DNA of 64,000 bases from Procambarus clarkii. Lineage: Eukaryota > Arthropoda > Malacostraca > Decapoda > Cambaridae. This document shows positions 3,768 through 58,621 of the stretch, in pieces. The notes under the pieces were generated by a model. It was not told the origin of the DNA and made no database searches. It saw only the letters and a program-made list of their open reading frames with translations. Each line of letters opens with the position of its first letter. Positions within the stretch are counted from its first letter, which is position 1. The position numbers and the translations under genes are program-made. The stretch is taken from positions 7,790,936 through 7,854,935 of the forward strand of contig NC_091228.1 in NCBI RefSeq assembly GCF_040958095.1, in the 5' to 3' direction.

Positions 3768-3944
3768 ATATCTTCTGTCTGCAGACGAGGAGTCACAATA
3801 ACGTGGCTGAAATATGTTGACCAGACCACACACTAGAAGGTGAAAAGACGACGACGTTTCGGTCCGTCCTGGACCATTCTCAAGTCGAAACGTCGTCGTC
3901 CCTTCACTTTCTAGTGTGTGGTCTGGTCAACATATCTTCTGTCT
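3768..3944 (-). mobile_element. Hairpin element copy 1 with 13-bp target duplication
   Basis: Element 3781-3931 lies between two identical 13-bp copies of ATATCTTCTGTCT (3768-3780 and 3932-3944). The constant end (GCAGACGAGGAGTCAC on the plus strand) is at the left. The body is a large inverted repeat whose arms carry GACCAGACCACACACTAG and ACGACGACGTTTCGG. It is read as minus because the constant end is treated as the 3' end. No coding capacity. Confidence 0.85.
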
Positions 3945-4250
3945 ATTTTGATGTGTTATAAATCTTTGTTAGTGGCTTAAGACTTGTTCCCAAGTCCTGC
4001 AGACAAAAAATAACTTTTACCTCTACCCGGTTTAAAACTATCTTGTTTATTTTCTGCTTGTCTACATCGTTTACTCTTGGGGCCTTGAAAGCATTTGTGA
4101 AGACGGTCTGAAACCTCTTGTCTAAAACTTTACACATTTCCCCTTCCGTCTCCTCTATTTAAGTTCCTTCTATGAGACTTTTGATTTTGTTCCCCGAACG
4201 CAGTTCGCTCATTAGAAACTTGAAAAAGAGAGAGTTTTTGTTACTTTTTC

Positions 4251-4314
4251 GTTCTCTCTCTCTCTCTCTCTCTCTCCCTCTCTCTCTCTCTCTCTCTCTC
4301 TCTCTCTCTCTCTG
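4251..4314. repeat. (CT)n microsatellite, left of SINE-2
   Basis: CT array with one CCC interruption. It resumes on the other side of the SINE at 4503. Confidence 0.95.
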
Positions 4315-4502
4315 GCTCTACCACTTGGGCTAGACGGTAGAGCGGCGGTCTCGCTTCATGCAGATCGGCGTTCAATCCCCGACCGTCCAAGTGGTTGGGC
4401 ACCATTCCTTCCCCCGTCCCATCCCAAATCCTTATCCTGACCCCTTCCCAATGCTATATAGTCGTAATGGCTTGGTGCTTTCCCTTGATAATTCCTTCCT
4501 TG
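4315..4502 (+). mobile_element. SINE-2, tRNA-derived, inserted in a CT array
   Basis: tRNA-like head with A-box-like GACGGTAGAGCGGCGG and B-box-like GCGTTCAATCCCC. Then follows GTCCAAGTGGTTGGGCACC and the family's 3' part (ATCCTTATCCTGACCCCTTC, GCTATATAGTCGTAATGG). CT repeats flank both sides. Confidence 0.85.
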
Positions 4503-4614
4503 TGTCTCTCTCTCTCTCTCTCTCTCTCTCTCTCTCTCTCTCTCTCTCTCTCTCTCTCTCTCTCTCTCTCTCTCTCTCTTTCTCTCTCTCTCTTTCTCTC
4601 TCTCTCTTTCTCTC
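4503..4614. repeat. (CT)n microsatellite, right of SINE-2
   Basis: About 50 CT units with occasional TTTCT changes. Open frames on both strands (poly-SL or poly-RE) are products of the repeat. Confidence 0.95.
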
Positions 4615-5019
4615 TCATGCACTAATGTTCAGGCCTAGTCATGTGTAAATACCAGGTATTCTACTAGAACCCTTCTGTTTAATTTTTCTCGGTCTATTAA
4701 AAATTTAAATAATACAAGTCTATAGTATATTTACTTTTGTTCATCCTCTTATACATATATATCTTCCAGCTTTCTGGTAGTTCCCCCCTTTTCCTGTGAA
4801 GCATCATAGGTTATTGAAATATACTCGCTCAGAACTTTAACATTAGTGAGCTTGCATTGGAAGATTGTATTGTTCCATAGCTATGAACACGTTCATCAAT
4901 TAGGGTGCAAGAAGAAAGTTCTTTAGCTGACAAAGATTTCTTTTCCAATTCCTGGCACAAGAAATTTGGTTTATCAGCATTAGTTCAGAACCTGGTTCAT
5001 TGTCAGGCAAGAGGTTGGG

Positions 5020-5279
5020 TTATCTTGGGTTTATCTTGAGGTTATCTTGAGATGATTTTGGGGCTTAGCGTCCCCGCGGCCCGGTCCTCGACCAGGCCTC
5101 CACCCCCAGGAAGCAGCCCGTAACAGCTGACTGACACCCAGGTACCTATTTTACTGCTAGGCAACAGAGGCATAGGGTGAAAGAAACTCTGCCCATTGTT
5201 TCTCGCCGGCGCCTGGGATCGAACCCAGGACCACAGGATCACAAGCCCAGCGTGCTGTCCGCTCGGCCGACCGGCTCCC
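5020..5279 (-). mobile_element. SINE-1, near full length
   Basis: Read on the minus strand: tRNA-like head (GGTCGGCCGAGCGGACAGC; B-box GGGTTCGATCC), core with GGGCAGAGTTTCTTTCACCC and TAGGTACCTGGGTGTCAGTC, a GC-rich part (GAGGACCGGGCCGCGGGGAC) and a tail of AAGATAACCTC repeats. The conserved tail and GGGAGCC start define the limits. Confidence 0.9.
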
Positions 5280-5739
5280 CGGTCGGGTAGGTAGATACAT
5301 ATTCATACTATTTTGCTTTAGGAACTTAACATTATCTCAGGGTATTTACATTTGTAATATTAACAGTTAGCAGGCAGCTAAACTAATATTTTCCAGGAGA
5401 CAATAACACATGTGCTCCAAACTAACTCATTCCACTAATTATAGGTTAAGCTTCTTTATTGACTGTTGTATAGAGGCGTTGGGAACCACCAACGGCTCAC
5501 ACGACAGTCAAACATCATCAATCGTCAGAAAGTGAGAATAATTTGGGACCAAAGACACAGAAGTGAATCACGTTATAAGAGGAATTTTCCCTTTAGAGTG
5601 TATTTTAGCCTTTGATTCTGTTTAAGGTTACAGTATATTTGTTAGTTGATGAGTATGCTAGAGTCGAGACCTTTTATAACCATTGTGAAGGTCATAGGCC
5701 TTTAGCTCAGCACCGAATTAACCATTTGGACCTTCATGT

Positions 5740-5982
5740 GTATGGGAAAGTATGCAGGTGATGAGTCACAATAACGTGGCTAAAGTATGTTGACCAGACC
5801 ACACACTAGAAGGTGAAGGGACGACGACGTTTCGGTCCGTCCTGGACCATTCTCAAGTCGATTGTGATGAGGAAGTGGAGACAGGCAATAAAATCGACTT
5901 GAGAATGGTCCAGGACGGACCGAAACGTCGTCGTCGTCCCTTCACCTTTTAGTGTGTGGTCCGGTCAACGTATGAGAAAGTA
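5740..5982 (-). mobile_element. Hairpin element copy 2 with 13-bp target duplication
   Basis: Element about 5753-5969. Flanks GTATGGGAAAGTA (5740-5752) and GTATGAGAAAGTA (5970-5982) match at 12 of 13 positions. Long arms (GACGACGACGTTTCGGTCCG and its complement) surround a loop of about 40 nt that carries GATGAGGAAGTGGAGACAGG. Constant end (GCAGGTGATGAGTCAC) at left. Confidence 0.85.
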
Positions 5983-6318
5983 ATTCTTACATCCAACGGG
6001 AATCTCTTCACTTCCAGGTTGGCGTTCTTGTAGTCGACTTAACGTTCCAGTTGGGTGTTTATAACCTAGCTGGGCCTATATGGCGCTCCCTACAACCTGG
6101 TGAATCAAATATTTACGGGAATTCTTTCCACGAATCTTAAATTCCGCACGGCAGCACGAACTGTCTGTCTCGGGACAGAAGGAAAACCCAACATTGACCT
6201 GTATGTCCAAGCGCCGTAAGGAACAGATTATTCATGGCAGTAATTATTGGGTGATGTCCTCATCAGTGAGAACGTAAAATAATTAGAAACTAAGTGTTAG
6301 TAATATGTTTATATATAT

Positions 6319-56794: not shown

Positions 56795-56905
56795 TAAGGA
56801 TGACATAGAATTAAAGATGACTTAGAATTAAGGATGACTTAGGGATGACTTAGGATTAAGGATGACTTAGGATTAAGGATGACTTAGGGATGACTTAGGA
56901 TTAAG
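56795..56905. repeat. GGATGACTTA repeat
   Basis: About seven irregular copies of TTAAGGATGACTTAGGA. Confidence 0.85.
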
Positions 56906-57240
56906 GAGCAGGAAAACACTTTGCCAGAATGCTCTTTGATGCTCTTCGCCAGAATTAAGAACAGAGTCAGAAGATATTTACAAAAATCTGATACAAATAG
57001 ACTGCCACCATTGAGTAATTTAGAATGTGGCTTCAAAGATATTAATGTCCTATTTAGGGAAACATATAGTGGTGCTGTTTATTAGTTTGGTAGAGTAAGT
57101 TCAGCTTATAATTAGGGATATTAGCGAAGCTGTTTATGCTGCCTTTTGGGAAGATGAATACAGTTTATTATTTCATTAGATTTGTCTCACCCCCTTTCGC
57201 TTATTCTTCCCGTTATTCTTCTGTTTTGTAACGGTAATTA

Positions 57241-57360
57241 CTCTCTGCTTGCAGGCGATGAGTCACAATAACGTGGCTGAAGTATGTTGACCAGACCACA
57301 CACACTAGAAGGTGAAGGGACGACGACGTTTCGGTCCGTCCTGGACCATTCTCTCTGCTT
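57241..57360 (-). mobile_element. Hairpin element, single-arm 100-bp copy with perfect 10-bp target duplication
   Basis: Exactly 100 bp (57251-57350) between two identical CTCTCTGCTT copies (57241-57250, 57351-57360). It has the constant end (GCAGGCGATGAGTCAC) and one complete arm to CCTGGACCATT, but no second arm. Shows that one arm is enough to be inserted as a unit. Confidence 0.9.
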
Positions 57361-57591
57361 CAATATTCTTCTCAAATATTCTGTGTTTCCTTTCTTTCCT
57401 TGACATTTCTTACCTCTTGTTTCTTTCTCTCTGTTCTTCCTCCATTTGTTATCTTCCATTTCTACGTCATCCCCTCTTTCACCTGCTTCTTCTTTTTCTC
57501 CTCATCTTATCCTTCCAAATAATCTTCCTGCTTTCTTCCTCTTCAAACAATCTTTCTATCCCACTTTCTCCTCTTCCTCTCTCTCCTTCAG

Positions 57592-57738
57592 GTCACAGAG
57601 AGGGGCTGCCTGGCCAGCCCCTCTCTCAGGAGCAAGCAGACAGCTTCTCCTCGACTCAAAATGCCGACCCATTCAAAAAGCCCAGATCCCAACGCGGCAT
57701 CTTTTTCACACACTTTAACATAGAAAGTGTGGCCATGA
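57592..57738 (+). other. Candidate exon after a pyrimidine tract (unproven)
   Basis: A C/T-rich tract from about 57370 ends in CTCTCCTTCAG at 57591. The next bases are open in a frame reading HREGLPGQPLSQEQADSFSS ... KKPRSQRGIFFTHFNIESVA. Possible weak donors: GTGTGG near 57728. A G-rich tract (57783-57830) follows. No family recognised. Right border uncertain. Confidence 0.3.
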
Positions 57739-57954
57739 ATGTTTATCAAGTGACGCGGATCCACAGGCATTACTGCAGCCTCTGGGAGGGGGGAGTCGAA
57801 GGAAGGGGGTTATAACAGGGGGCAGAAATGACCGTAGGAGTAAAGAAATGACCGATCTGTTACTCAAATGACCGCCAGCAAGCGAACCGACTTTGTATTT
57901 ATGGTCCTTTAAATGGGAAATGAGGGGAGAGCCGGGCGGCCAAGAGACAAGGAA

Positions 57955-58245
57955 CGAGGGAACGGGTCGACCAGGAAACGGGTCGACCAGGGAACGGGGT
58001 GACAAGGACACGGAGTGATGAGCGAACGAGTCGGCCAAGGAACGGTGCAATCAGGGAACTGGTCGACGAAGTGTTCGGACGATCAGGTAACTGGTCGATG
58101 AAATGTTCGGACGATCAGGTAACTGGTCGACGAAGTGTTCGGACGATCAGGTAACTAGTCGACGAAGTGTCCGGACGATCAGGGAACCGGTCGACGAAGT
58201 GTCCAGACGATCAGGGAACAGGCCCACTGAAGAACGGTCGACCCA
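57955..58245. repeat. 31-bp minisatellite with decayed units
   Basis: Units with GGTCGACGAAGTGTTCGGAC and GATCAGGTAACT; upstream simpler GGGAACGGGTCGACCAG repeats. Confidence 0.9.
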
Positions 58246-58405
58246 CAGAACCCAAAGAACGTATAATTACTTTACTCGTCAATGTCATCAATATTATTGC
58301 AAAAAATGTGCAGAATGCTTCCGTCCTCACACTTCCGGCGCATCAATTAGTCACTGATTCCTCTCAATATCCAGTGACAAGATCTGTTTTCATTTTTACG
58401 TCAGC

Positions 58406-58621
58406 GTTGATGTATATGCAGGCGATGAGTCACAACAACGTGGCTGAAGTATGTTGACCAGACCACACACTAGAAGGTGAAGGGACGACGACGTTTCGGT
58501 CCGTCCTGGACCATTCTCAAGTCGATTGTGAGAATGAGTCTCTCACGTCTTGTGAGAATGTGATTGTGAGTCACAATCGACTTGAGAATTGTCCAGGACG
58601 GACCGAAACGTTGATGTGTAT
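58406..58621 (-). mobile_element. Hairpin element copy 5 with 12-bp target duplication
   Basis: Element 58418-58609. Flanks GTTGATGTATAT (58406-58417) and GTTGATGTGTAT (58610-58621) match at 11 of 12 positions. The second arm stops at GGACCGAAAC, so the variable end is truncated. The loop is about 60 nt with its own GAGAATG and TCACAATC repeats. Confidence 0.85.

What the first reader, a model, noticed from the sequence alone, without database searches (positions are those of the whole stretch)
3768..58621. Hairpin retroposon family with one fixed end and 10-13 bp target duplications
Copies at 3781-3931, 5753-5969, 15404-15579, 19616-19789 and 58418-58609 share the constant end TGACTCCTCGCCTGC, a long inverted repeat and flanking duplications of 12-13 bp (two perfect, three with one mismatch). 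The other end varies: most start at GACCAGACC, while one is cut at GGACCGAAAC. A fixed 3' end, truncated 5' end and variable duplication length are what target-primed reverse transcription gives, not what most cut-and-paste DNA elements give. The transcript would fold into a near-perfect hairpin with a 3' overhang of about 35 nt. No tRNA-like promoter or poly(A) tail is visible. It may be an undescribed class of non-autonomous retroposon.
Basis: partly seen in the sequence, partly recalled or inferred. Interest (0 to 1): 0.85.

Follow-up and report, generated by a model that had tools for sequence, protein, structure and literature searches.

The report
Hairpin insertions of a Penelope retrotransposon
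The short hairpin repeats are real reverse-transcribed insertions, but they belong to a known kind of jumping gene, a Penelope-like retrotransposon, whose leader RNA appears to be copied once from each end of the cut target site.

Summary
Five hairpin copies have one near-constant end, a long inverted repeat and 12-14 bp target duplications. A sixth, arm-only copy lies at 57251-57350. The commoner tail form has 15,964 exact 25-nt copies in the 4.03-Gb genome; its reversed control has none.

The partner is not a LINE. [quoted passage not shown] This is a Penelope-like element (PLE): the hairpin is its inverted pLTR, the overhang the known PLE "tail".

Of 81 deduplicated tail-bearing insertions, 61 have duplications (8-18 bp, mode 13). 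In their 47 hairpins one outer end is the tail end; the other starts 31-40 nt inside in 42, where target ends match the RNA better than chance (2.11 vs 0.69 nt). So both outer ends look like priming sites, and truncation lies at the hairpin centre. Most arms stop 104-118 nt from the tail end, probably the RNA 5' end.

A new member of a known kind, not a new retroposon class; useful as a large in vivo record of dual-site priming.

The parts
3768..3944 (-). Hairpin copy A with perfect 13-bp duplications (3768-3780, 3932-3944): sense arm and tail 3781-3888; inverted arm up to 3931, which reaches only 81 nt from the tail end
5740..5982 (-). Hairpin copy B with 13-bp duplications (5740-5752, 5970-5982, one mismatch): sense arm 5754-5892 reaches 139 nt, inverted arm 110
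15392..15592 (+). Hairpin copy C with 12-bp duplications (15392-15403, 15581-15592, one mismatch): inverted arm from 15404, sense arm and tail to 15579
   Evidence: fold
19604..19801 (-). Hairpin copy D with perfect 12-bp duplications (19604-19615, 19790-19801)
58406..58621 (-). Hairpin copy E with 12-bp duplications (58406-58417, 58610-58621, one mismatch; extends them to 14): inverted arm starts about 77 nt from the tail end, not at the usual inner site
57241..57360 (-).
47903..47980 (-). Sense arm without tail (112 to 35 nt from the tail end), ending at the inner start site; no clear duplication
62960..63103 (+). Two degraded arm fragments

Best explanation
The copies are ORF-less, short insertions of a Penelope-like element (PLE) with a GIY-YIG endonuclease. 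The template appears to be the 5' leader (pLTR) of the element's RNA, directly upstream of the ORF. The PLE protein would cut both target strands with a stagger of about 13 bp. One target end primes reverse transcription at an outer site (end of ...CTCATCGCCTGC, 2 nt before the ATG) and gives the sense arm with the tail. The other target end primes at an inner site (near CAACATAC, mostly 31-40 nt from the outer end) and gives the inverted arm without the tail. Both cDNAs run to about 112 nt from the outer end, probably the RNA 5' end, and are joined there, which yields a head-to-head hairpin with a one-sided tail. If only one cDNA is made, the product is a plain copy of about 110 nt; a longer template adds ORF. 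Shown here: the tail shared with a PLE, two start sites, duplications, unequal arms, target microhomology. Inferred: the cutting step, priming by both target ends, the RNA 5' end, and whether one template or two are used.
For: Partner: L070 carries an 831-codon open frame with RVT_1 (E 7.7e-8, above its cut-off) and C-terminal GIY-YIG (E 0.0013, below its cut-off); a frame in L069 gives the same picture. L070 has the arm and tail at its 3' end and 18 nt of the same tail directly before ATATGGATACC; L055 has a hairpin, the tail and then this ORF start. Duplications in 61 of 81 against 4 of 1183 in the null. First base of the inverted arm 31-40 nt from the tail end in 42 of 47 hairpins with duplications. 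Microhomology between the duplication's 3' end and the RNA complement at the inner junction: mean 2.11 nt, against 0.69 with shuffled duplications (0 of 2000 shuffles as high) and 0.38 with random window flanks. Arms unequal in both directions by 10 nt or more: inverted longer in 10 of 47, sense longer in 9 of 47. In L072/L044, not among the 47 because it lies at locus edges, the inverted arm is about 2.3 kb and the sense arm 44 nt, with an 11-bp duplication read by eye. Sense arms stop at 104-116 nt in 44 of 61, inverted arms at 104-118 in 37 of 47. 33 distinct centres among the 39 of 55 hairpins whose centre could be read. PMC11167929: a purified PLE protein cuts and extends both strands and starts at two internal RNA sites that bound the tail.
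Against: The two arms share the same variant at a 4-nt site in 26 of the 32 (of 55) hairpins where both could be read (null mean 10.1, max 19), which a self-copied strand would also give; priming by both ends then needs templates from one source. 28 of 47 hairpins have arms equal within 10 nt, as self-priming would also give. The microhomology could in part come from end joining; 9 of 47 junctions have none. PMC11167929 saw no difference in start site between the strands in vitro, whereas here the two ends use different sites. No hammerhead ribozyme, reported for PAc and other PLEs, was found. No RNA data. The sample was mostly chosen by the tail, and two-tailed clusters were set aside before the count, so the one-sided tail in the 47 is partly built in; those 4 clusters had no duplication that passed.
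Confidence: 0.75

Rival explanations
1. Snap-back self-priming: one cDNA primed at the tail reaches the RNA 5' end, folds back and copies itself; the inverted arm ends where copying stops and is joined to the target. A variant starts from an antisense RNA that primes itself.
For: Arms match in a subfamily variant in 26 of 32; 28 of 47 have arms equal within 10 nt; self-priming on an antisense template is proposed for rotifer PLEs in PMC3846280 (Discussion read).
Against: With a sense template the inverted arm cannot exceed the sense arm, yet it does by 10 nt or more in 10 of 47 and by 2.3 kb in L072/L044. With an antisense template the sense arm cannot exceed the inverted arm, yet it does in 9 of 47. 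A mixture of both is not excluded. A stop at nearly the same inner site in 42 of 47 with target microhomology is not predicted.
Confidence: 0.15
2. A hairpin-shaped master SINE is transcribed and copied as one unit by a LINE or PLE.
For: High copy number, constant tail, strong fold.
Against: 33 distinct centres among 39 read, arms unequal in both directions; plain copies of about 110 nt and ORF-bearing inverted copies lie in the same series.
Confidence: 0.05
3. A cut-and-paste or foldback DNA transposon (MITE).
For: Inverted repeat with short duplications.
Against: Duplication length varies, 8-18 bp; one-sided tail; arm-only copies with duplications; continuity with a reverse transcriptase and GIY-YIG frame. 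I did not search for a transposase.
Confidence: 0.02

Closest known systems
Penelope elements of the rotifer Adineta vaga (PMC3846280; passages and Discussion read)
   Same: One ORF with RT and GIY-YIG endonuclease; inverted pLTR next to a direct pLTR; optional 31-bp tail on one of the inverted pLTRs; duplications of 8-10 bp in the passages seen
   Different: Low copy number there; here thousands of short copies, those sampled mostly without ORF, with longer duplications (mode 13)
Poseidon from Anolis carolinensis, PAc (PMC11167929; parts 1-2 of 4 read)
   Same: Two adjacent internal start sites on the RNA bound the 30-40 nt tail; both target strands are cut and extended
   Different: PAc starts inside the ORF and has a hammerhead ribozyme; here the outer start lies 2 nt before the ATG and no hammerhead was found; in vitro the strands did not differ in start site
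L1 twin priming (PMC2837659, search listing and start of abstract only; mechanism recalled)
   Same: A second cDNA primed from the other target end gives an inverted 5' part
   Different: In L1 the inverted and sense parts come from adjacent stretches of one RNA (recalled); here they overlap nearly completely in most hairpins and the second start is at a nearly fixed site
Animal hammerhead retrozymes (PMC7229834, search listing and start of abstract only)
   Same: Short non-autonomous retroelements of animals
   Different: No hammerhead found here

Membership tests
Endonuclease-bearing Penelope-like element (PLE) | Single ORF with RT followed by C-terminal GIY-YIG endonuclease | tested here: met
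   RVT_1 above its cut-off; GIY-YIG at E 0.0013 and 0.00096 but below Pfam's cut-off, in two copies; only weak matches of the RT part to solved generic reverse transcriptases
Endonuclease-bearing Penelope-like element (PLE) | pLTRs in direct or inverted orientation | tested here: met
   tail again before the ORF in L070; inverted plus direct pLTR before the ORF in L055
Endonuclease-bearing Penelope-like element (PLE) | Optional 30-40 nt tail on one side | tested here: met
   inverted arm starts 31-40 nt inside the tail end in 42 of 47. Two-tailed clusters exist: 4, at 2 distinct places, none with a duplication that passed
Endonuclease-bearing Penelope-like element (PLE) | Target duplications and frequent 5' truncation | tested here: met
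   61 of 81 with duplications of 8-18 bp; sense reach 34-2255 nt among those 61
Endonuclease-bearing Penelope-like element (PLE) | Hammerhead ribozyme motif (reported for PAc and other PLEs in PMC11167929; whether it is universal was not checked) | tested here: not met
   no hammerhead family up to E 10; one loose core pattern on the minus strand, judged chance
Endonuclease-bearing Penelope-like element (PLE) | RT groups with PLE and telomerase RTs in a tree | not tested
   No tree was built; the assignment rests on domain order and insertion structure
LINE-SINE pair | Head derived from tRNA, 7SL or 5S RNA with a Pol III promoter | tested here: inconclusive
   the only ARAGORN hit in the window is at 108-180, outside the copies; none of 43 Rfam matches in six loci reaches its gathering score. 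Box A and box B were not scanned for
MITE / foldback DNA transposon | Both ends fixed, duplication of one length | tested here: not met
   length 8-18 bp; arm-only copies with duplications

The most novel reading that the evidence does not exclude
PLE integration may be a paired reaction in which each target end takes its own start site, one outer and one inner, on the 5' leader of the mRNA. Leader-only hairpins would then be the default product, and full copies would need tandem transcripts. The thousands of tail copies here would be a natural archive of that reaction.
Probability: 0.45. Interest if true: 0.6.

Novelty: new member of a known kind. Interest (0 to 1): 0.45.

Why it matters
The abstract of PMC11167929 says that relatively little is known about how PLEs transpose. 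This genome holds thousands of insertions that record both start sites, the length of the duplication, the microhomology and the join. If the paired-site reading holds, one step explains the odd PLE anatomy (inverted pLTR, one-sided tail) and can be tested directly. It also warns that such hairpins can be misfiled as MITEs or SINEs.

Tried and rejected
Rfam scans: six loci gave 43 matches up to E 10, mostly microRNA families on hairpins plus a few others, none at its gathering score and no hammerhead; the L070 element gave none. A hammerhead-like stretch (GAAACGTCGTCGTC after a short stem) was considered and dropped because the CTGANGA core is missing in front of it. A LINE as partner was considered after longer 3' UTRs appeared and dropped once the frames proved RT plus GIY-YIG. 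The 112-nt stop as an RNA start: TCA at +1 and GGACC at +28 to +32 fit an Inr-DPE promoter (motifs recalled), but the DPE-type motif occurs four times in the leader, so this is weak. A search of the papers for six sequence strings found none; searches for PLE with pLTR, twin priming, palindrome or crustacean terms listed no paper that by title and abstract start treats such leader hairpins; the lists are capped and subscription papers are not held. A tail-independent count of the arm core could not be had: the genome search did not complete.
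Full report
Observation. The constant end is constant only up to substitutions: TGACTCCTCGCCTGC is exact in 2 of the 5. The window holds a further arm-only copy with a perfect 10-bp duplication at 57251-57350, a tail-less sense arm at 47903-47980 and degraded arms at 62960-63103. The window is G000:C79:7790936-7854935 of an unnamed 4.03-Gb genome; that it is a decapod crustacean is my recollection of its repeats and was not tested.

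Numbers. The 25-nt tail CACGTTATTGTGACTCATCGCCTGC has 15,964 exact copies and no reversed control; the 38-nt tail with up to 2 mismatches has 17,566 and none; the 15-mer TGACTCCTCGCCTGC has 2,085 and one. The sets overlap. They count tails, not hairpins.

Sample. I mapped one PLE copy (L070) onto the window and the loci fetched by then, L001-L096. Of 124 clusters, 112 lay at least 30 nt from locus ends. I set aside 17 with duplicate flanks, 10 without a tail and 4 with a tail on both sides. That left 81 insertions, 55 of them hairpins; 61 have a duplication of 8-18 bp (mode 13 in 20 of 61; 45 of 61 perfect), 47 hairpins and 14 without an inverted arm. 20 of 81 had no duplication that passed. 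Pairing flanks of different copies gave 4 of 1183. The sample was mostly drawn by the tail, so it is biased towards tail-bearing copies, and the removal of two-tailed clusters builds the one-sided tail into the 47. As a partial check, among hairpins that lie in the window (5) or off-centre in fetched loci (5; my count from the listing), 9 of 10 have the tail on one side and 1 has it on neither. The 4 two-tailed clusters lie at 2 distinct places and none had a duplication that passed.

Partner. Longer copies carry a common 3' UTR above the arm. Of eight 10-kb stretches fetched, two (L069, L070) showed long frames that end about 370-390 nt before the tail end. [quoted passage not shown] RVT_1 passes its cut-off, GIY-YIG (E about 1e-3) does not. 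A search of solved structures gave three weak matches of the RT part to generic reverse transcriptases. In L070, 18 nt of the tail also stand directly before ATATGGATACC and the ATG of the frame. In L055 a hairpin and its tail are followed by the same ORF start at 98.8% identity. This is the anatomy of a Penelope-like element with pLTRs. No stretch of the window matches this protein (tblastn to E 1e-3).

Two start sites. In the 47 hairpins with duplications the inverted arm begins 31-40 nt from the tail end in 42; the other five begin at 44, 44, 59, 63 and 77. The 3' end of the duplication matches the RNA complement next to this site by 2.11 nt on average; shuffled duplications give 0.69 and none of 2000 shuffles reaches the observed value; random window flanks give 0.38; 9 of 47 have no match. 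At the outer site the flank starts with A in 47 of 61 and has T in second place in 29 of 61. This fits both the sequence that follows the tail before the ORF (ATATGG) and the preference for cutting at ATT reported for PAc (PMC11167929); the two cannot be told apart here.

Where synthesis stops. Sense arms reach 104-116 nt in 44 of 61, inverted arms 104-118 nt in 37 of 47. Several of the plain copies carry a few extra bases there. I infer that this is the 5' end of the RNA, about 114 nt before the start codon. Longer templates occur: 121, 139, 184, 247, 269, 661 and 2255 nt for sense arms, 495 and 700 for inverted arms, and about 2.3 kb for the inverted arm of L072/L044, whose sense arm has only 44 nt. 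That one lies at locus edges and is not among the 47; its 11-bp duplication was read by eye.

Which end primes what. Snap-back of one cDNA forbids inverted arms longer than sense arms; 10 of 47 are so, by 10 nt or more. Self-priming on an antisense RNA forbids the reverse; 9 of 47 are so. A hairpin master forbids diverse centres; 33 are distinct among the 39 that could be read, of 55. Priming by both target ends allows all of these. Against it, the arms share a subfamily variant in 26 of 32 (null mean 10.1, max 19) and 28 of 47 have arms equal within 10 nt, so the templates come from one source, or one strand was copied from the other in part of the cases. A mixture of the two self-priming models is not excluded.

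What is known. PMC3846280 (passages and Discussion) describes inverted pLTRs, an optional 31-bp tail and duplications of 8-10 bp, and suggests self-priming on an antisense template. PMC11167929 (parts 1-2 of 4) shows that a PLE protein cuts and extends both strands and starts at two adjacent internal RNA sites that bound the tail; it saw no difference in start site between the strands. PMC8969392 (passages) notes inverted pLTRs and short 3' extensions. PMC10454600 (passages) gives a mean of 2.3% Penelope elements in Astacidea. PMC12910113 (passages) added nothing on this point. The present family is therefore a member of a known kind. What I did not find described in the searches named (listings only, apart from the papers named here) is a mass of leader-only hairpins in which each end uses its own start site.

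Noticed in passing
window 9299-9474, 11518-11675, 15894-16048, 38452-38627, 49001-49176, 55227-55400: Another dispersed family of about 155-176 nt; copies are 86-91% complementary to the one at 49001-49176.
   Followed up: no
window 5065-5167, 18649-18755, 19397-19503, 46984-47088, 63574-63680: A dispersed family of about 105 nt; copies are 92-96% complementary to the one at 63574-63680. Tandem 11-mers ATCTTGAGGTT stand nearby in places and form an array at about 59963-60125.
   Followed up: no
window 22269 to about 23900, 36772-37333, 1867-2312, 62077-62454, 6277-6612, 49806-50249: Minisatellite arrays with units of 33, 34, 26, 21, 16 and 37 bp.
   Followed up: no
window 108-180: ARAGORN calls a tRNA-Thr (CGT); whether it is a gene or a SINE head was not tested.
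   Followed up: no
L046 1501-1547, L074 33-79 (same place): A 47-nt tail-only copy inside a frame with an [FY]ADD-type motif, with a possible 6-7 nt duplication that did not pass the later threshold.
   Followed up: partly
L070, about 6570-7150: The PLE copy sits in a tandem array of a TACCATCACCAGGTAGCTACACC-like unit.
   Followed up: no
L039-L043 (G000:C1:2433143-2481588): Five near-identical arm copies within 50 kb share the same flanks, so the region was probably duplicated after one insertion.
   Followed up: no
L023-L025 and L032 1501-1722: Hairpins with a full tail on both sides (2 distinct places) and no duplication that passed; origin not explained.
   Followed up: partly
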